Source: a virus. From it: DNA of 64,000 bases. The position numbers and the translations under genes are program-made. Position 1 is the stretch's first letter, and each line of letters begins with the position of its first letter. Under the pieces are notes generated by a model that did no database searches, was not told the DNA's origin, and saw only the letters and a list, made by a program, of their open reading frames with translations. Positions 1 through 53,302 of this stretch are shown here, one piece after another. The stretch is from IMG/VR virus record IMGVR_UViG_3300008262_000017, positions 28,406 through 92,405 of that record; one strand, written 5' to 3'.

Positions 1-967
1 AAACGTAACTGGTTACACTTAATATATTAAAGGTACACATAAAAGTTACAGGCCTTGCTGTTTTTCTAATAAACAGATCTAAGTTCTTTTCCCATAATTC
101 TAAATCAAGACCTGTACGTAGATACTCAGCACGTTTACCCCAAGTGTCCATACTTGAAAAAACTTTAAATTCTTTTATCTTATTGTTAGATAATAAATCA
201 TTTACATTGTCAGCTAACTTTTCAACCATTGCTGTTTTTACACCAAGGTTACTATTAATATTAAGTTCTAAATGAGGTTTAGGTTCTTCACGAAGTGTGT
301 CAAATAATCTCCAAGTACTTTTATGCATTAACGGTTCTCCGCCGGTGATGCGAAGAATGTTTAATGTCTTAGACATTTCTGGCCACCATTTCCACCAAGC
401 TTCAATCCACGGATTATCTTCTTCTTGTTGAACTTTGAACCATTCAATACTGTTGCCGTGATTTTTTACTTTAGGGTAAGGACCATGCTGTTTGATTTCG
501 CTGTAGTAACTACTAGAGTGTTTAGGATGACAATAACCGCACTTAAAGTTACATTCGTTACTAAAACTAATTTCAATGTAGTCTGGATTTACATTAAGAT
601 CCCATCTGTTTGATGTTATTTCGTCTACCATTTCAGGTCGATACAATGCTGCATTACGAATGTGCCTATCACTGATATGATCACCACCTAAGTTTTCCAC
701 ATTCCAACAGTACTGACAACCTTTTGGTTTTTCTCCTACTAGCATTTCAGCACGTTCTTTTTTCTTTTGAATAGTGTTGTGCAATGCGCTGGGATTAGTT
801 TTTAATTCAATTAACGGAATATCATGAGGTGCAGGATGATAGCAACTGTGCGTTTGTCCCATGTGCATATACATAGTTACATGATGCCATTTAGCCAAAC
901 AAAATGTAGGACTAATTTCATTTGTTATTTCTATAACTTTTCTAATTTTGTCTGTTTCTCGACTCAT
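1..967 (-). CDS. Radical SAM enzyme, first of two paralogs (partial, C-terminus beyond window)
   Basis: I read this gene directly from the minus strand; it runs off the left edge after 322 codons. The radical SAM CX3CX2C motif is at about residues C139, C143 and C146 and binds a 4Fe-4S cluster that cleaves SAM. A TGGEP motif follows, as is usual for SAM binding. The N-terminal part has further conserved cysteines (C42, and CQYCW at 84-88) that match those in the neighbouring gene. The start ATG overlaps the upstream gene's stop as ATGA, which implies translational coupling. It is clearly paralogous to the 444-aa gene beside it. Related twitch/SPASM-type radical SAM proteins are known in marine phages, but the substrate cannot be told from sequence. 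Modification of a sugar or peptide is an inference from the glycosyltransferase neighbours. Confidence 0.85.
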   Translation of the reverse strand, partial: MSRETDKIRKVIEITNEISPTFCLAKWHHVTMYMHMGQTHSCYHPAPHDIPLIELKTNPSALHNTIQKKKERAEMLVGEKPKGCQYCWNVENLGGDHISDRHIRNAALYRPEMVDEITSNRWDLNVNPDYIEISFSNECNFKCGYCHPKHSSSYYSEIKQHGPYPKVKNHGNSIEWFKVQQEEDNPWIEAWWKWWPEMSKTLNILRITGGEPLMHKSTWRLFDTLREEPKPHLELNINSNLGVKTAMVEKLADNVNDLLSNNKIKEFKVFSSMDTWGKRAEYLRTGLDLELWEKNLDLFIRKTARPVTFMCTFNILSVTSYV

Positions 968-2298
968 AGCTGTTTACATTTTTGCAAAAATTCATTCATT
1001 TCAGGGAATGTATTTTGAAAACTTGTGCCTCTCCTTTTATCATGTTCTATAACAAATGCTGCAAAATCTTTTTGGTCTTGTATTTTAGATTGATTGTTTT
1101 TTACATGATTTTCAAATAATTTATAAATTCTTTCAAATCTATGAATTTCATGATCAAAAAACTCTCCAGACTTTATGTAGCTTAATTGATTATCAAAGTA
1201 TTTAATAAAAGATTGATCCAGGATGAATATATTTTGATGAGGAGGCCATCTAAGATAAGAGATATCTAAACTTAGATTTTTCTTGTTATGCTGGCTTCTT
1301 AAATCTATCCAATCTTTTAAGAAATCTAAGTAACTTGTAACGCTTAATGCATTGTACGTTGACATTACAGTGAGCTTACCATTTGGTACTTCTTTTAAAA
1401 ATTTATTACAATTTTCTTTCCACTCTTGATAATTAAGTCCAAATCTAATATATTCTGCGTTAGCACCGTGTGCCTCTGCACTAGTGTAAAGTTTAAAAGA
1501 TTTTATTAAATTATTTTCTTGAATGAATTTTATCTTATCAATAAACTGATTAAAAATTTTAGAGGGTACACCTAAGTTACTATTAATATTAAGTTCTAAA
1601 TTTGGTCTAGGATTTTGTATAATGTAGTCTAAAACTTTAAATGTGTTTTTAGTTAACAAAGGTTCGCCGCCAGTGATACGTAAAACTTCTAAACTAGGAT
1701 ATAGTGTAGGCCACCATTCCCAAAAAGCTTCAACATAAGGATTGTACTCAGATTCTGATACTGGCAATTTGTCCTGACTCTTTAACCATTCTAAATTGTT
1801 AAAATTTGTACTGGTAGGATAAGCGCCATGTTGTTTAATTTCTTCAGTCCATTTTGAACTTGCTTCAGGACTGCAATAGCTGCATTTAAAATTACAAGTG
1901 TTGCTGAAACTGACTTCTAAATAACTAGGATTATGATTTCCTAAAGGATTTGCAACAATAGAATCAATATGATTGATAGCCCAACTGTCTACACTTTTCA
2001 TTATACGATCGCTGTACACATCTAAGGAGGTATCTTCAACCTTCCAGCAGTAATCGCATTCAGCTGGTCTAATGCCATCAATCATTGCTAATTGCTGTTG
2101 CTTTTTAAAAGATGTATTATGCAATGCACTTACATTTACAGCAATTTCATTTAGAGGAATTTTATGAGCTACAGGATGATGACAACTATGAGTTTGACCA
2201 GTTGCTAAATGTATTGTTACTTGCTTCCATTTAGCAACACAGAAACTAGGACTAATAAAGTTTAGTTTGTTTCTAAACTCATTAATTTTATCTTTCAT
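964..2298 (-). CDS. Radical SAM enzyme, second paralog (444 aa)
   Basis: This is a complete radical SAM protein. The cluster-binding CX3CX2C motif is C135, C139 and C142, and TGGEP is at 209-213. The N-terminal extension carries C39 and the CDYCW motif at 81-85, shared with the adjacent partial paralog. The extra cysteines might bind a second cluster, but that is inference. Start and stop both lie in ATGA overlaps with its neighbours (4 nt each), so it sits inside one translationally coupled operon. The family typically activates SAM to a 5'-deoxyadenosyl radical; the substrate is unknown. Context of three GT-A-like enzymes suggests glycan or precursor modification in the infected cell. Confidence 0.88.
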   Translation of the reverse strand: MKDKINEFRNKLNFISPSFCVAKWKQVTIHLATGQTHSCHHPVAHKIPLNEIAVNVSALHNTSFKKQQQLAMIDGIRPAECDYCWKVEDTSLDVYSDRIMKSVDSWAINHIDSIVANPLGNHNPSYLEVSFSNTCNFKCSYCSPEASSKWTEEIKQHGAYPTSTNFNNLEWLKSQDKLPVSESEYNPYVEAFWEWWPTLYPSLEVLRITGGEPLLTKNTFKVLDYIIQNPRPNLELNINSNLGVPSKIFNQFIDKIKFIQENNLIKSFKLYTSAEAHGANAEYIRFGLNYQEWKENCNKFLKEVPNGKLTVMSTYNALSVTSYLDFLKDWIDLRSQHNKKNLSLDISYLRWPPHQNIFILDQSFIKYFDNQLSYIKSGEFFDHEIHRFERIYKLFENHVKNNQSKIQDQKDFAAFVIEHDKRRGTSFQNTFPEMNEFLQKCKQL

Positions 2299-3185
2299 CT
2301 TTTTAGAATTCTATCCGTGTTGGTATAAACTCTTTTAAAAAATTTAGAACCTTCCTTGTCAATATTTGATATTTCTAAATCTAATTCAGTTTTAAGCTGA
2401 CTGCTTAACCAGACACTGTAGTCATCAGGATCTGTTTTATCTTCATGTTTTTCTTTCCAATAATTTGTAAGATAGTCAAAATCTCTAACATTAGCATAAT
2501 CCCAATCTGTACAGTTTGTCATATAGCAGCCTTCTCTGGCTCCTAGCATACTCCAGATACCGTTCTCTACATCAGCACCAACGTTACACCATATTAACAA
2601 ACGTTGATAATTTTGCCACCAAACACGTTTGATATCATCAGCTTTAGCGCCTTCGTTTAAACTCATTTTTACGCCTTCACGAAATCCTGCACGCCATGCT
2701 TGAAATGGAGTTGCGTTTGTAAAACTCTCACTGTAGTTTTCGTTAAACTGATAATATCTGTTATCAAAACAAAACTCAACTAGTCCTTTATGATCATTAG
2801 GATCTGAGTTTTCGTGAGTCTTCATTTCATTAACAAATTTTCGAGTCCATAACTTGAGGCCGCCATTTCCATACATTAGATGATTGACGTGTACTTTGCC
2901 GCACCAACTGAATACATGATTTTCAGTCAGTCCTAGTTCTTCTAAGTCTATTTCGACTTGAAAAAACTTAGGGTCAACAATATTGTCTGCGTCAACTGTA
3001 ACAAAATATTCAGTTTCGCTTTTTGCAGCACAGGCTTTATGTGCCGCATCACTGCCTTTAACTCCGTGAACACGTTTAGCCCACGGTACTTTTTTTACCA
3101 AGTCTGCATAATTTTTTTCTGCATTAGGCTCATCATAACTTAAAAATACAATATCTTGATCAACAACTTTAATCTTACTGGACAT
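2295..3185 (-). CDS. GT-A-like glycosyltransferase (296 aa)
   Basis: The protein resembles a nucleotide-sugar glycosyltransferase of the GT-A fold: an N-terminal alpha/beta segment ends in the acidic DAD motif at residues 65-67 (in TVDADNIVDP), which normally binds the metal and the sugar nucleotide. The rest is rich in Trp and Tyr and not recognisable to me. I start it at the ATG at 3185 because AAGGA lies five bases upstream; an in-frame start five codons earlier has no such site. The start overlaps the preceding gene by 11 nt and the stop overlaps the radical SAM gene by 4 nt. The acceptor is unknown. Confidence 0.65.
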   Translation of the reverse strand: MSSKIKVVDQDIVFLSYDEPNAEKNYADLVKKVPWAKRVHGVKGSDAAHKACAAKSETEYFVTVDADNIVDPKFFQVEIDLEELGLTENHVFSWCGKVHVNHLMYGNGGLKLWTRKFVNEMKTHENSDPNDHKGLVEFCFDNRYYQFNENYSESFTNATPFQAWRAGFREGVKMSLNEGAKADDIKRVWWQNYQRLLIWCNVGADVENGIWSMLGAREGCYMTNCTDWDYANVRDFDYLTNYWKEKHEDKTDPDDYSVWLSSQLKTELDLEISNIDKEGSKFFKRVYTNTDRILKR

Positions 3186-3765
3186 ATTTTTCCTTAACAC
3201 AATAGTCTCTAAACTTTTTAATAGTATACACTGAAATATTTGAAAAATCTAGTTCCATATTAGAAGTAAACTCGAACGATACTGGTCCGTTAATCAAGTC
3301 AGTTGCACTTGCTATATATTCTGCTATCAAAAAACACGGGTTGTCTTTTTTACAAATATAAAAAGGAACGGTAGATACAATAGTTAATCTATCTGTTGCT
3401 TGAGACGTTGTAGTTGCAATCCAAACTTTTTCTTGTATGTTATATTCAAAAATTACATCACAATTTGTTAAATCTTTTTTTGGAATTTCATACAGAATAT
3501 AATCAGTTTTTATAAGATCTTCTTGTTCCTCTGTGTCTGAAATAAGTCCTGCACTAATATTAAAGAAATAGTCAATTTTGTATTTTGTACAATCTTTAAT
3601 GCCTCGAATAAAATTTGGAATTAAATGTATGCTAATTTCAAAATTATTTAAACTTTCATCTTTAACATTACTAGCCAAATAAACTTTACCGTCATTATCA
3701 TAATGTACAAAAAAACTTTTTACTTCATAGGCTTCTATGAAAGGTTTAACTATATCTTCTTGCAT
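3175..3765 (-). CDS. Unknown protein in the glycosyltransferase/radical SAM operon (196 aa)
   Basis: I do not recognise this protein. It has no signal peptide or membrane segment and looks like a soluble alpha/beta protein with many aromatic residues. It overlaps both neighbours (20 nt upstream, 11 nt downstream), so it is almost certainly translated as part of the operon. I prefer the ATG at 3765, which has AGAAAG five bases upstream; a GTG two codons earlier would sit too close to that site. Its position between two glycosyltransferase-like genes suggests a partner role, which is inference only. Confidence 0.6.
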   Translation of the reverse strand: MQEDIVKPFIEAYEVKSFFVHYDNDGKVYLASNVKDESLNNFEISIHLIPNFIRGIKDCTKYKIDYFFNISAGLISDTEEQEDLIKTDYILYEIPKKDLTNCDVIFEYNIQEKVWIATTTSQATDRLTIVSTVPFYICKKDNPCFLIAEYIASATDLINGPVSFEFTSNMELDFSNISVYTIKKFRDYCVKEKYVQ

Positions 3766-4579
3766 AAGCACTTTCTAATTTTTTAATAAAATTTTCAGTT
3801 AAGAAACCTTCTTCTACATAATGCAACAATCCAGATTGTTGAAAATTTCCCACTTTTAAATTTAATTCATCATCTAAAAAACTGTTCAATACATTTGTCC
3901 ATTTAGATGGAATATTTTTCCATCCTTGCACACCTGGTTTCATATGAATAAAAGAAGGAATTCCTCCTTTATCTACATGTGTACCCATAAATCTAAGAGC
4001 TAACGCGGCGCTAAGATCAATGCTACAAAAAGATTGGGCATGATTTTTTAAATGAATTCTATAAAATTTTTGCCAATGTACTACAATAATTTCAAGCCAT
4101 TTGAAAAATTCATAAGCAGTATTTACTTTTCTAAAATAAAATGCTCCTGTGTAAATATTATCTAATCCGTTACGTGTGAATGATTTTCTGTAATAATTGC
4201 TGTTAACAACATTACCTCTATAATCACGAACATGAGTAGTAAAACATAAATCTTTGTTTTCGAAATAATCCCACCAATGGTCATTACTTTCTAATAACAA
4301 CATATCAACATCATATACAATATTTTCTTCAAATGGAGTTGCATAGATTATCTTCCATCTGTTTTCAATTTTCCATTGAGTAGATGCAGCTGAATCTTTC
4401 CATGGAATCGGAACTATGTGATCAAATACATATCTGTATTTTTCTGGAACTGAGTCGTTAGTAATAAGACAAGTTTTGTTTTCTTGATTATGTATTTTAA
4501 TAGACAACGCTAGTGCATAGGCTTGCTCAACATAATCTACGTCAGAATTTTGCGCTAAAAATACATGACCTTTACTCAT
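3746..4579 (-). CDS. GT8-like glycosyltransferase (277 aa)
   Basis: The protein has the layout of GT-A glycosyltransferases that use a nucleotide sugar: an N-terminal segment for a rearranged nucleotide-binding fold, then a DVD metal-binding motif at residues 90-92 in VYDVDMLLL, and late His residues (GLLHYVE near the C-terminus) of the sort that complete metal binding in GT8. It resembles the next gene upstream, 4572-5402, in length, DVD context and overall pattern, so the two are probably diverged paralogs. The start ATG overlaps the stop of that gene by 8 nt (ATGAGTAA), the same arrangement as at the next junction up. The sugar and acceptor are unknown. Confidence 0.7.
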   Translation of the reverse strand: MSKGHVFLAQNSDVDYVEQAYALALSIKIHNQENKTCLITNDSVPEKYRYVFDHIVPIPWKDSAASTQWKIENRWKIIYATPFEENIVYDVDMLLLESNDHWWDYFENKDLCFTTHVRDYRGNVVNSNYYRKSFTRNGLDNIYTGAFYFRKVNTAYEFFKWLEIIVVHWQKFYRIHLKNHAQSFCSIDLSAALALRFMGTHVDKGGIPSFIHMKPGVQGWKNIPSKWTNVLNSFLDDELNLKVGNFQQSGLLHYVEEGFLTENFIKKLESAYARRYS

Positions 4580-5402
4580 TATCTAACATCCTTATTAAAC
4601 TATATTTGTTCATTACGTGAATGTCATTGTTAGAAAATTTCAAAGGCAGATAATCACTTTCTTTATTTTCATTTTCAACTAAAAAATAAAAATCTCTATC
4701 TTTTATCTTAACTAAAATATCTCTATCTAAAGTATAAAATAATTTGCCTGGCAAACGTTTTGCAAATTCTCCAGACGAATATCCGTTCATAATATGAATT
4801 GCAATACTAAAAGCAAAATCATTTCTAAAACTTGAACTATTAAGATGAAATAAAAATTTGTAATATTGCCAATGCTGTTTAATATGAGATACTAAAGAAA
4901 AAAACTGAGCTGTTTCTTCAGTCTTTTTAAAAAAGAACACAGTAGCCCAGTAAAATGGAATAGAATAATCACTTAAATGTGTAAATTCACTTACGTCTTT
5001 TCTTTGGCCTATATCATAAAATTTATTATATATTAAAAAGTCATAAGGTTGATTCCAACAATAAGAAAGAACATTAGAGTTTATTACATAATCAACATCT
5101 ATTACAAGAGTCTCATCGTACGGGGACAAATCAAAACTATCATTTCTGTGAGAATTTTTCCAATGAGTTTTAGATATTTTGGCGCCGTCGTGAAATCTTT
5201 TAAGATGATATTTCTCATTTTCAATAATTATGATGTTATCAAATAACAATTTATCATTTATTAACAAAGATGATTCTTCATCTGTAACTACAGACACTGG
5301 CACTTGTAAAAATTTATGTACTCTTTTAGCAGTATCTTCAGCTAGCTTTATATAATTAATTTCAGAATTATTTAAAGCAAATAACAACACACCTTTAGTC
5401 AT
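4572..5402 (-). CDS. GT8-like glycosyltransferase, paralog of the neighbouring gene (276 aa)
   Basis: This has a GT-A-like layout with a DVD motif at residues 102-104 (LVIDVDYVINS) after an N-terminal nucleotide-binding-like half. It starts MTKG, close to the MSKG of its downstream neighbour, and the two share the position of the DVD motif and the aromatic segments after it. I chose the ATG at 5402, which overlaps the stop of the 118-aa gene by 8 nt (ATGACTAA); an in-frame TTG three codons earlier is possible but less likely. No transmembrane helix is seen, so it probably acts in the cytoplasm. The substrate is unknown. Confidence 0.68.
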   Translation of the reverse strand: MTKGVLLFALNNSEINYIKLAEDTAKRVHKFLQVPVSVVTDEESSLLINDKLLFDNIIIIENEKYHLKRFHDGAKISKTHWKNSHRNDSFDLSPYDETLVIDVDYVINSNVLSYCWNQPYDFLIYNKFYDIGQRKDVSEFTHLSDYSIPFYWATVFFFKKTEETAQFFSLVSHIKQHWQYYKFLFHLNSSSFRNDFAFSIAIHIMNGYSSGEFAKRLPGKLFYTLDRDILVKIKDRDFYFLVENENKESDYLPLKFSNNDIHVMNKYSLIRMLDNE

Positions 5403-5751
5403 AAAGATCAATCAAACTTTCTATTTTACGCTGTTTGATTAATGAACTATGCTTGTTGTAATAAGCATTAGCTGATTCAAAATAAACTGAAACTACCTTA
5501 TCAAAAAAAGTTTTGAGATTTTCTATATTGACAGGGGTATTGTTATCATCTACTAAAACTACATTTTCTGTATAACCAATATCTAATAAAGTTTTAGAAA
5601 AATTAATCAATTCTTTCGAAGACGTAAAAGTTCCTCCATTTTCGTAATAGAGAAGACTTTGTAAAAATTCTTCATTTAAAATATTTTTTTGGCTAACCAA
5701 CGTAGCCATATAATTGGCATTATCAAATGCCTTTTGAACTCTTTCGTCCAC
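5395..5751 (-). CDS. Unknown first gene of the glycosyltransferase/radical SAM operon (118 aa, GTG start)
   Basis: I do not recognise this small, mostly helical protein. It opens the operon and begins with GTG; the Shine-Dalgarno sequence TTAGGAG (5764-5758) lies six bases upstream. That same SD is the 3' arm of a terminator-like hairpin, and the U-run of the terminator is the spacer between SD and start codon, so its expression should depend on where transcription begins (see the regulatory entries). It overlaps the next gene by 8 nt. Aromatic-rich C-terminal half, no signal peptide. Confidence 0.7.
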   Translation of the reverse strand: MDERVQKAFDNANYMATLVSQKNILNEEFLQSLLYYENGGTFTSSKELINFSKTLLDIGYTENVVLVDDNNTPVNIENLKTFFDKVVSVYFESANAYYNKHSSLIKQRKIESLIDLYD

Positions 5752-5796
5752 AAAAAACTCCTAAGTTAATAGTACTATACTATTTTATCTTAGGAG
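5752..5796 (-). terminator. Intrinsic terminator hairpin whose 3' arm is also a ribosome-binding site
   Basis: On the minus strand CTCCTAAG (5796-5789) pairs perfectly with CTTAGGAG (5765-5758). An inner 7-bp stem AATAGTA/TACTATT (5784-5778 with 5774-5768) surrounds a 3-nt loop. Six U residues (5757-5752) follow directly. This is a good rho-independent terminator for the late tail block ending at 5821. Its 3' arm is the SD of the GTG gene at 5751. Confidence 0.8.
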
Positions 5797-5802
5797 TGTC
5801 AA
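5774..5802 (-). promoter_or_regulatory. Host sigma-70 type promoter inside the terminator hairpin
   Basis: On the minus strand TTGACA (5802-5797) is followed after exactly 17 nt by TATAGT (5779-5774). The -35 hexamer is perfect and the -10 matches 5 of 6. The spacer holds the 5' arm of the terminator, and the -10 falls in the loop region, so the expected start (about 5767) lies in or beside the 3' arm. It should drive the glycosyltransferase/radical SAM operon early in infection. Confidence 0.75.
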
Positions 5803-5820: not shown

Positions 5821-6882
5821 TTATAGAGCAGTTGCAACGCCTGTAGGTGCTGGAACATCAACGTTTCCGCCAGTACCAGATGGTCTTGTGCATCGAACTA
5901 GACTAGTTAACGTACCTGTTACTTCTTCGTCAACGGCGCTGCCGATACCAGTTTGATCGCCTGCGTCGTCATCTCTGAATGTAATTACAAACTCTAATGT
6001 GCTAGCAGTTGGTCTACGCACTTTAATAATGTAGTCGTTTTCTACATACTTGTTATTAGGTGTTGTAGGACCAGTTGTTCTAAATATTTGTGTGTAGTTA
6101 GTTGATCCAGTAACAAGCTGAAAAAATCCAGTTGTAGTAGCAGTACCAGGAAGTGTACTATCAGCTGTTGGACCAGTTCCGCCTTCAGTAGAAGTAGCAG
6201 TATTAGTATTTCCGCCGCCTAAAGATTGTGTGTTGTTAGCACCAAAATAAATTTGTTGGAACTGATTTAGTAAATCTTTCCACATAGCATTTTTAGTTCC
6301 AGCTGCTGGAGGATCAATAGTAGGTACAAAGGTACCAGAAATTTGAATATAACCACCAGTATTAAAGAAATAAGTTGCATGATCTGCAGGAGTAACAGTA
6401 AACGCACCTCCATTTTGTGTATAACCGTTAAATGTAAGAGTTACTGTATGACTGATAACGTCTGTAGCTCCTCCCCAGTTTGCAGTTCTTTGGGTAGAAG
6501 TGATAGCTACGTTAGGAGTTAACTGAGCAGCATTATGCTGATTTTTATTAGTATTAATAAAGTTTGAAAAATTAGTATACTGAGTTAAAATTGCATCACT
6601 AATAACAGTAGAAGATCCAATTGTTTGTAAGTAAGGAGGATTAACATTAACAATAGCTAATACGTCTTCCACTGCAGGTGTATTATTTGTTTGGTGTATG
6701 TATGCTCTTATCATGTCAGTTCTTACACTATTCCATTGTGTAGATGAAACAACAGTGTTAGGTTGAGCTGGGGCACTATTTAAAAATTGCCCGTATCCTG
6801 TAGGGTTTGCACCTAAAACTAAACTGGTTGTTGCTTGCAAATTATTATATGCAGCTGAGGTAATGCTATCGCCTTTTGACAT
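5821..6882 (-). CDS. Virion structural / fibre-associated protein, unknown (353 aa)
   Basis: This is the last gene of the leftward tail block. The protein is rich in Thr, Asn, Gly and Ser with beta-strand-like segments, which is typical of fibre or adhesin-type virion proteins; the N-terminal 130 residues look more helical. I cannot name a family. A strong SD (AAGGAGG) precedes the ATG. It follows the three paralogous fibre proteins by 12 nt, and the terminator hairpin lies just downstream. A role as an adhesin or fibre accessory is inferred from position and composition. Confidence 0.6.
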   Translation of the reverse strand: MSKGDSITSAAYNNLQATTSLVLGANPTGYGQFLNSAPAQPNTVVSSTQWNSVRTDMIRAYIHQTNNTPAVEDVLAIVNVNPPYLQTIGSSTVISDAILTQYTNFSNFINTNKNQHNAAQLTPNVAITSTQRTANWGGATDVISHTVTLTFNGYTQNGGAFTVTPADHATYFFNTGGYIQISGTFVPTIDPPAAGTKNAMWKDLLNQFQQIYFGANNTQSLGGGNTNTATSTEGGTGPTADSTLPGTATTTGFFQLVTGSTNYTQIFRTTGPTTPNNKYVENDYIIKVRRPTASTLEFVITFRDDDAGDQTGIGSAVDEEVTGTLTSLVRCTRPSGTGGNVDVPAPTGVATAL

Positions 6883-36992: not shown

Positions 36993-37000
36993 TATTTAGT
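36993..37000 (-). promoter_or_regulatory. Weak late-promoter-like site ACTAAATA
   Basis: ACTAAATA on the minus strand matches 6 of 8 bases of the T4 late consensus and stands 22 nt before the first gene of the leftward tail block, where a late promoter is expected. It abuts the -35 of the rightward early promoter. The match is weak. Confidence 0.3.
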
Positions 37001-37028
37001 TGACAAAATAAACTGCATATATTATAAT
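37000..37028 (+). promoter_or_regulatory. Perfect host sigma-70 promoter before gp55
   Basis: TTGACA (37000-37005), exactly 17 nt, then TATAAT (37023-37028): both hexamers match the bacterial consensus completely. It stands 22 nt before the gp55 ATG, with TGGAG as ribosome site. It should be read by unmodified host RNA polymerase and serve as an early promoter for gp55, gp47, gp46 and the following genes. Confidence 0.85.
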
Positions 37029-37049
37029 GCGCTAACCCCTTGGAGTAAT

Positions 37050-37871
37050 ATGAAAGTTAACTATTTAAATAACAAAGATCTACTAGAAGAAATTCACAAA
37101 AGCAAAAACACATTCTGTTCGTTTAACGATCCGTCTTATCACCAATATGATATTATCTTGCCCAATGTTGATAAAATCAACATTAGAACTATTGCAGAAG
37201 CTAAAAGAAATAAAGCCAAGCGATTAGGGGATCAAGAATATGCAAGACGTAAAGCTGCCGGCGAAAAAGTTAAGCAAGCAGAGTGCGAAGTAGATTATAA
37301 AAAAATCACAAAACAAGAACTAGTGTTTAGAATCATGACATTCGATCATATTCCGCTAAATGGCACTAGAAAAAAGAATCCCAAAAGTGTAGCTGATCAT
37401 AGAGATAAAGTAAATTTTCCTCCATTCCAACATTTTAAGTTTAACGATCAAGATATTTTAGAATGTGTTGGAAAAAGTCACTGGAAGGGTCCGTTAGATA
37501 CTGGTAAATTTAATAAAGATCACGGACAGATTACAAATACACTAGCACGGATGTATATCAAACTGTGCGAGCGTTATGCTACTAGGGGTAACGTTAGAGG
37601 TTACACTTACAACGACGAAATGAAGGGGCAGGCTATTTTACAACTTGCCCAAATTGGTCTACAGTTTGACGAGTCAAAGTCTAATAATCCGTTTGCTTAC
37701 TTTACAGCCGCTGTAACTAATAGCTTTGTTCGTATTATTAACTTGGAAAAACGCAATCAAAACATTCGAGATGATCTGCTTGAAATTAATGGTATGAATC
37801 CTAGCTACACTAGAACTAGCGACGGCGATCATGCTAACGCTATGAAAAGATTTGATGCCGAAACCGAGTGA
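37050..37871 (+). CDS. gp55: Late-transcription sigma factor gp55 (273 aa)
   Basis: The C-terminal half matches T4 gp55, the phage sigma that directs host RNA polymerase to TATAAATA-type late promoters: MKGQAILQLAQIGLQFDES at 191-209, then NNPFAYFTAAVTNSFVRIIN at 212-231 and EKRNQN, equivalent to sigma region 2, which contacts the polymerase clamp and the -10 element. The protein is longer than T4 gp55 (185 aa); residues 1-120 form a basic, coiled-coil-like extension (AKRNKAKRLGDQEYARRKAA). It starts behind a perfect sigma-70 promoter, fitting an early or middle switch gene, and the late sites annotated here are its likely targets. Confidence 0.92.
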   Translation: MKVNYLNNKDLLEEIHKSKNTFCSFNDPSYHQYDIILPNVDKINIRTIAEAKRNKAKRLGDQEYARRKAAGEKVKQAECEVDYKKITKQELVFRIMTFDHIPLNGTRKKNPKSVADHRDKVNFPPFQHFKFNDQDILECVGKSHWKGPLDTGKFNKDHGQITNTLARMYIKLCERYATRGNVRGYTYNDEMKGQAILQLAQIGLQFDESKSNNPFAYFTAAVTNSFVRIINLEKRNQNIRDDLLEINGMNPSYTRTSDGDHANAMKRFDAETE

Positions 37872-53274: not shown

Positions 53275-53302
53275 AAAGGGCTCTTCGGAGCCCTTTTTCT
53301 TT
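53275..53302 (+). terminator. Intrinsic terminator after gp23
   Basis: GGGCTC-TTCG-GAGCCC (53278-53293) is a perfect stem with a stable UUCG-type tetraloop, flanked by AAA and TTT that extend the stem, and followed by TTTTTCTTT. It ends the capsid transcript 33 nt after the gp23 stop. Confidence 0.92.

What the first reader, a model, noticed from the sequence alone, without database searches (positions are those of the whole stretch)
5751..5802. Promoter, terminator and ribosome site folded into one 50-bp switch
Seen on the minus strand: TTGACA-17 nt-TATAGT overlaps a two-part stem followed by six U and then a GTG start. The hairpin 3' arm contains the TTAGGAG SD. Inference: transcripts coming from the late tail block carry both arms, so they terminate or hide the SD; transcripts that start at the internal promoter lack the 5' arm, cannot form the hairpin and leave the SD free. 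One element would thus insulate the operon from late read-through and permit only early expression.
Basis: partly seen in the sequence, partly recalled or inferred. Interest (0 to 1): 0.85.

Follow-up and report, generated by a model that had tools for sequence, protein, structure and literature searches.

The report
Promoter buried inside a ribosome-site-hiding hairpin
In a T4-like virus of aquatic bacteria, the promoter of a gene cassette is built into an RNA hairpin that hides the ribosome-binding site on messages read through from upstream, so that (by prediction) only messages started at that promoter can be translated; many related viruses keep this layout while their sequences diverge.

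Summary
On the minus strand, TTGACA-17-TATAGT, a 9+7-bp hairpin whose 3' arm holds the Shine-Dalgarno (SD), a T6 tract and a GTG start share 52 bp; none of 300 simulated windows has such an overlap. The hairpin's outer 5' arm lies in the promoter spacer, upstream of the predicted start of transcription. Relatives of the 118-aa gene were found in 161 viral loci. In 73 divergent lineages the arms are complementary beyond chance (swap test z=-10; z=6 with the SD masked; other genes of the same phages z=+0.5), and the SD is hidden in 47% versus 8% of control genes. So a promoter embedded in an SD-hiding hairpin is supported by evolution, although only about half the lineages keep a strong hairpin. 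The terminator tract is a minority add-on (9/73 lineages, always with the hairpin). 'Early only' is not shown: some lineages carry a late-type TAAATA promoter in the same place. The trick is known from T4 e, soc, I-TevI, segB and Aeh1 mobE, with late promoters. This is a new variant: a sigma-70-type promoter behind structural genes, sometimes fused to a terminator. No transcript or protein data exist here.

The parts
5797..5802 (-). -35 hexamer TTGACA (its last base A5797 is also the first base of the hairpin)
   Evidence: same hexamer at the same place in many relatives
5774..5779 (-). -10 hexamer TATAGT, 17-nt spacing; lies in the inner hairpin
5789..5797 (-). outer stem, 5' arm ACTCCTAAG (anti-SD), at the start of the promoter spacer, upstream of the predicted start of transcription
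   Evidence: fold; swap tests
5778..5784 (-). inner stem, 5' arm AATAGTA
   Evidence: fold
5768..5774 (-). inner stem, 3' arm TACTATT
   Evidence: fold
5767..5767 (-). predicted +1 of the local transcript (7 nt after the -10; inferred, not mapped)
   Evidence: inference from -10 position
5757..5765 (-). outer stem, 3' arm CTTAGGAGT containing the SD (TTAGGAG 5764-5758)
   Evidence: per-position pair types in relatives
5752..5757 (-). T6 tract (terminator-like); present in a minority of lineages
5395..5751 (-). 118-aa gene, GTG start, head of the cassette; family with no Pfam/PHROG match
964..5411 (-). downstream cassette in the window: glycosyltransferase-like genes and a radical SAM gene, all overlapping head to tail; same-strand genes continue about 13 kb beyond the window's left edge
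5821..6882 (-). upstream 353-aa gene at the end of the tail/structural block; source of the presumed read-through transcripts

Best explanation
The element tells messages apart by where they began. Messages reading in from the late structural operon carry both arms, fold the hairpin and hide the SD of the 118-aa gene; in this phage and a few relatives the U tract may also end such messages. Messages begun at the embedded sigma-70-type promoter start a few nucleotides before the SD, lack the 5' arm and leave the SD usable. The cassette genes overlap, so masking the first SD may damp the whole cassette through coupling. Shown here by computation: promoter, hairpin, their overlap and evolutionary covariation. 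Inferred: folding in the cell, start site, termination, timing, coupling.
For: Promoter: at least 10/12 at the fixed place in 52 of 104 distinct upstreams versus 28 of 2080 shuffles. Arms: in 73 lineages cognate pairing is -10.27 versus -7.61 kcal/mol (sd 0.26) for swapped partners, 0 of 20,000; control genes of the same loci z=+0.5; with the SD masked z=6.0. SD hidden (P unpaired <0.1) in 47% versus 8% of 277 control genes, p=9e-13. Flanking pairs occur as several Watson-Crick types. Median cost of opening the SD is 8.5 kcal/mol higher in the long RNA; for L002, identical to the window here, 12.0 versus 2.3. T tract only with a hairpin: 9/34 versus 0/39, p=5e-4. Fewest state changes on the gene tree: hairpin 19, T tract 7, promoter type 15.
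Against: No transcript or protein data. 39 of 73 lineages lack a strong hairpin, including many with a good promoter, so the hairpin is dispensable or replaced. Because the predicted start of transcription lies only 2-10 nt before the SD, any 5' partner is necessarily upstream of it, so that geometry is not independent evidence. In the window's short RNA the SD is still partly paired with the coding region (P unpaired about 0.28). G-U versus A-C asymmetry, which would argue for RNA-level selection, is only a trend in a blind count (13:5, p=0.10). The gene tree rests on few columns, so counts of changes are approximate. Swap tests do not correct formally for relatedness.
Confidence: 0.7

Rival explanations
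1. It is simply the intrinsic terminator of the structural operon; the SD and promoter overlap it only because the junction is compact.
For: 9-bp stem, T6 tract, position at the end of the tail block. L067 and L101 have terminator-like hairpins without a recognisable promoter.
Against: In most relatives with the hairpin there is no T tract (25 of 34 hairpin lineages), while pairing with the SD remains. The SD is hidden far more often here than at other genes.
Confidence: 0.12
2. The inverted repeat is a DNA operator over the promoter for a phage or host repressor.
For: The dyad covers the spacer and -10; the inner palindrome ATAGTATAGTACTAT is operator-like. The G-U/A-C test is not decisive.
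Against: Arm sequences and loop lengths differ between lineages with no common half-site beyond the anti-SD/SD. In the hairpin class the 3' arm covers the SD, and the hairpin also occurs with a different promoter type.
Confidence: 0.08
3. Only the promoter is selected; the hairpin arises by chance from short A+T-rich leaders and a pyrimidine-rich spacer.
For: Many lineages have the promoter without the hairpin.
Against: Swap tests with and without the SD, with control genes at zero signal; 0 of 300 simulated windows.
Confidence: 0.04
4. The hairpin is a processing or stability element (for example an RNase site or a 3'-end cap for the late mRNA) rather than a translation switch.
For: Stem-loops at operon junctions often act so (general knowledge); T4 RegB cuts at GGAG and is blocked by structure (PMC3014915).
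Against: It does not by itself explain placement of the arm in the promoter spacer; untested here.
Confidence: 0.06

Closest known systems
T4 gene e (lysozyme) leader and I-TevI, I-TevII, I-TevIII, segB, soc; Aeh1 mobE
   Same: Long transcripts hide the RBS in a hairpin; a promoter in or next to the 5' arm yields a short message with a free RBS (PMC2988022; PMC3014915).
   Different: There the local promoter is typically late and the long messages are early/middle. Here the local promoter is sigma-70-type and the long messages come from the structural block, with a T tract in addition. Gene family and position are unrelated.
IS10/IS50 transposase protection from outside transcription (own knowledge: transcripts entering from outside fold the terminal repeat over the RBS)
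   Same: Read-through messages carry both halves of an inverted repeat and mask the RBS; the internal promoter's message lacks the outer half.
   Different: Mobile-element end versus phage operon junction; no homology. Not confirmed from a paper held here: in the passages read it is not described.
Overlapping early and late promoters of cyanomyoviruses such as S-PM2
   Same: Genes there can have both an early (sigma-70-like) and a late (NATAAATA) promoter upstream (PMC2984593); some relatives here carry both motifs.
   Different: No RBS-masking hairpin is described in the passages read.

Membership tests
T4 e/I-TevI-type promoter-in-hairpin translational switch | RBS sequestered by a stable hairpin in upstream-initiated RNA | tested here: met
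   covariation (prediction, not experiment)
T4 e/I-TevI-type promoter-in-hairpin translational switch | Local promoter placed so that its RNA lacks the 5' arm | tested here: met
   arm 5797-5789, predicted +1 5767
T4 e/I-TevI-type promoter-in-hairpin translational switch | Local promoter is a late (TATAAATA-type) promoter | tested here: not met
   Window has TTGACA-17-TATAGT; late-type TAAATA occurs at this place only in some relatives, e.g. L028, L039, L055
T4 e/I-TevI-type promoter-in-hairpin translational switch | Masked messages are early/middle polycistronic RNAs | tested here: inconclusive
   Upstream block encodes tail/structural proteins, presumed late, which would be the reverse of T4; timing not measured
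T4 e/I-TevI-type promoter-in-hairpin translational switch | Translation of long form reduced in the cell | not testable with these tools
   needs reporter or ribosome profiling
Intrinsic (Rho-independent) terminator | Stable stem directly followed by a U tract | tested here: met
   9-bp outer stem (4 G-C pairs), T6; apical part unusually long for a terminator
Intrinsic (Rho-independent) terminator | Transcript release at the U tract | not testable with these tools
   needs in vitro transcription or 3'-end mapping
Known Rfam regulatory RNA | Match to a covariance model above gathering score | tested here: not met
   no relevant match
DNA operator | Conserved half-site sequence and spacing across relatives | tested here: not met
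   only -35, -10 and the SD/anti-SD recur; arms and loop lengths vary

The most novel reading that the evidence does not exclude
A widespread module in uncultured T4-like phages fuses promoter, SD mask and sometimes terminator into about 50 bp, so that a cassette can be expressed only from its own promoter. Over evolution the promoter type (sigma-70 or late) changes while the mask is rebuilt around it, and the same design has arisen at other genes (for example L173 near 6546).
Probability: 0.45. Interest if true: 0.68.

Novelty: new variant of a known kind. Interest (0 to 1): 0.57.

Why it matters
It extends a classic T4 trick to sigma-70-type promoters and to protection from upstream structural-gene transcription. 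It gives a natural, compact insulator in which the promoter itself encodes the antidote to read-through, and a family of more than 70 natural variants (with and without hairpin, T tract or late motif) in which the contribution of each part could be measured.

Tried and rejected
Phage reference records: no DNA or protein match to the junction, to an L003 relative of the 118-aa protein or to the glycosyltransferase-like protein. Rfam: nothing relevant. Pfam/PHROGs for the 118-aa protein: none credible. G-U versus A-C strand asymmetry: 17:2 looked strong, but that set was chosen by RNA folding and the SD biases it; the blind recount is inconclusive. AGATAATTA as a late-promoter variant in the promoter-less relatives: not enriched in their records. 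Pfam sigma-70 region 3 as a probe for phage sigma factors: no match; gp55 was found by PHROGs instead. Genome-wide use of the design: 7 of 37 other promoter+SD genes in the sampled records look sequestered; on inspection I find two convincing (L173, L169), so I do not claim a general rule. PA5oct-type relatives (among the closest cultured major capsids): the paper search for a promoter map found only papers that mention PA5oct in passing, and none was read.

Full report
1. What is there. On the minus strand, between the end of a 353-aa tail-block gene (stop at 5821) and a 118-aa gene (GTG at 5751), 52 bp hold TTGACA (5802-5797), a 17-nt spacer, TATAGT (5779-5774), a two-part hairpin (outer ACTCCTAAG/CTTAGGAGT, inner AATAGTA/TACTATT), the SD TTAGGAG inside the outer 3' arm, T6 and GTG. 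The RNA folds at -15.6 kcal/mol, z -3.7. The promoter is the best sigma-70-like match in the first 14 kb of the window. The complete overlap is found once in the window and never in 300 simulated windows.

2. Setting. The window is part of a 92,405-bp viral record of a T4-like phage: portal, prohead protease, major capsid, baseplate hub/tail lysozyme and a gp55-type late sigma factor at 37050-37871. The closest cultured major capsid proteins are those of Sinorhizobium phage Phosso and the PA5oct group, 70-74% identical. Downstream of the element, on the same strand, lies a long run of glycosyltransferase-like, radical SAM, epimerase-like and other genes; in the window they overlap head to tail, and same-strand genes continue about 13 kb into the rest of the record. 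Only the window's radical SAM gene has a database hit above cut-off; the other class names are my reading of the sequences and synteny.

3. Relatives. The 118-aa gene is found in 161 loci, with more in the collection. Relatives at 43-45% protein identity keep TTGACA-17-TATACT and a hairpin with different arms around the SD (L003, L005). Over 104 distinct upstreams, 52 have a sigma-70-like site of at least 10/12 at the fixed place versus 28 of 2080 shuffles, and 22 have a TAAATA motif. TAAATA followed by SD and start is enriched in these genomes (29 versus 4 reversed controls), in line with the S-PM2 late promoter NATAAATA (PMC2984593).

4. Is the hairpin selected? The 5' part of each upstream was paired in silico with the SD part of every other lineage. 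Cognate pairs are clearly stronger: -10.27 versus -7.61 (sd 0.26), 0 of 20,000 permutations, in 73 lineages less than 75% identical; the same test on other genes of the same loci gives z=+0.5. With the SD masked the excess remains (z=6.0). The SD is buried in 34 of 73 lineages against 8% of 277 control genes. In the hairpin class, positions flanking the SD are filled by several Watson-Crick pair types. A maximum-likelihood tree of the gene needs at least 19 changes of hairpin state, 15 of promoter type and 7 of T tract (few columns, so approximate).

5. How it would work. RNA started at the local promoter begins about 7 nt after the -10, leaving 2-10 nt before the SD, and cannot contain the 5' arm. 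Predicted cost of exposing the SD is 12.0 kcal/mol in the long and 2.3 in the short RNA for L002, which is identical to the window here; the median difference in 20 lineages is 8.5. Such numbers rank designs; they are not measured fold changes. The short RNA keeps some pairing of the SD with the coding region.

6. Terminator. T tracts of five or more occur in 9 of 34 hairpin lineages and 0 of 39 others, so the combination is not random, but most hairpin lineages do without it. SD masking is therefore the likelier core function and termination an accessory in some phages, this one included.

7. Timing. Some relatives put a late-type motif by or in the hairpin's 5' arm instead (L028, L039, L082, L125; in L055 and kin the predicted hairpin covers the start codon). 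The shared property is origin of the message, not time. Expression data are needed.

8. Comparison with the known. T4 e, soc, I-TevI, segB and Aeh1 mobE use this logic, typically with late promoters against early read-through. The present case has sigma-70-type and late-type versions at one locus, works against transcription from a structural block, and can be fused to a terminator. I file it as working like the T4 switch, not as a member: the late-promoter criterion is not met in the window.

9. Elsewhere. A 275-kb relative has a near twin at another gene: TTGACA-agataatagACTCCTGC-TATACT ... GCAGGAGTTTTTT|ATG (L173), and a second in L169. The design may recur, but the survey is small.

Noticed in passing
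L173 near 6546 (minus) and L169 near 15862 (minus): Same promoter/anti-SD/SD overlap at two other genes of a 275-kb relative; the L173 copy also ends in T6 directly before ATG.
   Followed up: partly
L086 10880-10908 (+), outside the window: Perfect hairpin ACAGGACC-TACG-GGTCCTGT fills the spacer of a 12/12 sigma-70-like promoter; similar spacer palindromes appear in the 275-kb relative G003.
   Followed up: no
window 5395-5751 (-): The 118-aa protein models well (pLDDT 88): helix, small sheet, long helix. Best fold match is an uncharacterised phage protein (E 1e-6); nearest named folds are phage DUF4376 proteins, weakly (E about 2e-3). A chaperone-like role for tail fibres is a guess.
   Followed up: partly
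window 36993-37050: Divergent junction: a 12/12 sigma-70-like promoter faces the gp55-type late sigma gene (+) while a late-type ACTAAATA lies on the other strand before a virion gene.
   Followed up: no
L088, L090, L105, L117 and kin, upstream of the 118-aa gene: A group of relatives lacks both promoter types but shares AGATAATTA at the same place; meaning unknown, and the motif is not enriched in the records tested.
   Followed up: partly
window 53275-53296: Classic terminator-like hairpin AAAGGGCTCTTCGGAGCCCTTT followed by T's just after the major capsid gene.
   Followed up: no
record left of the window (L087) and window 964-5411: Long sugar-modification-like cassette (glycosyltransferase-like, radical SAM, SGNH-like and epimerase-like genes) directly behind the tail block; could modify the fibres or the host surface.
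   Followed up: no
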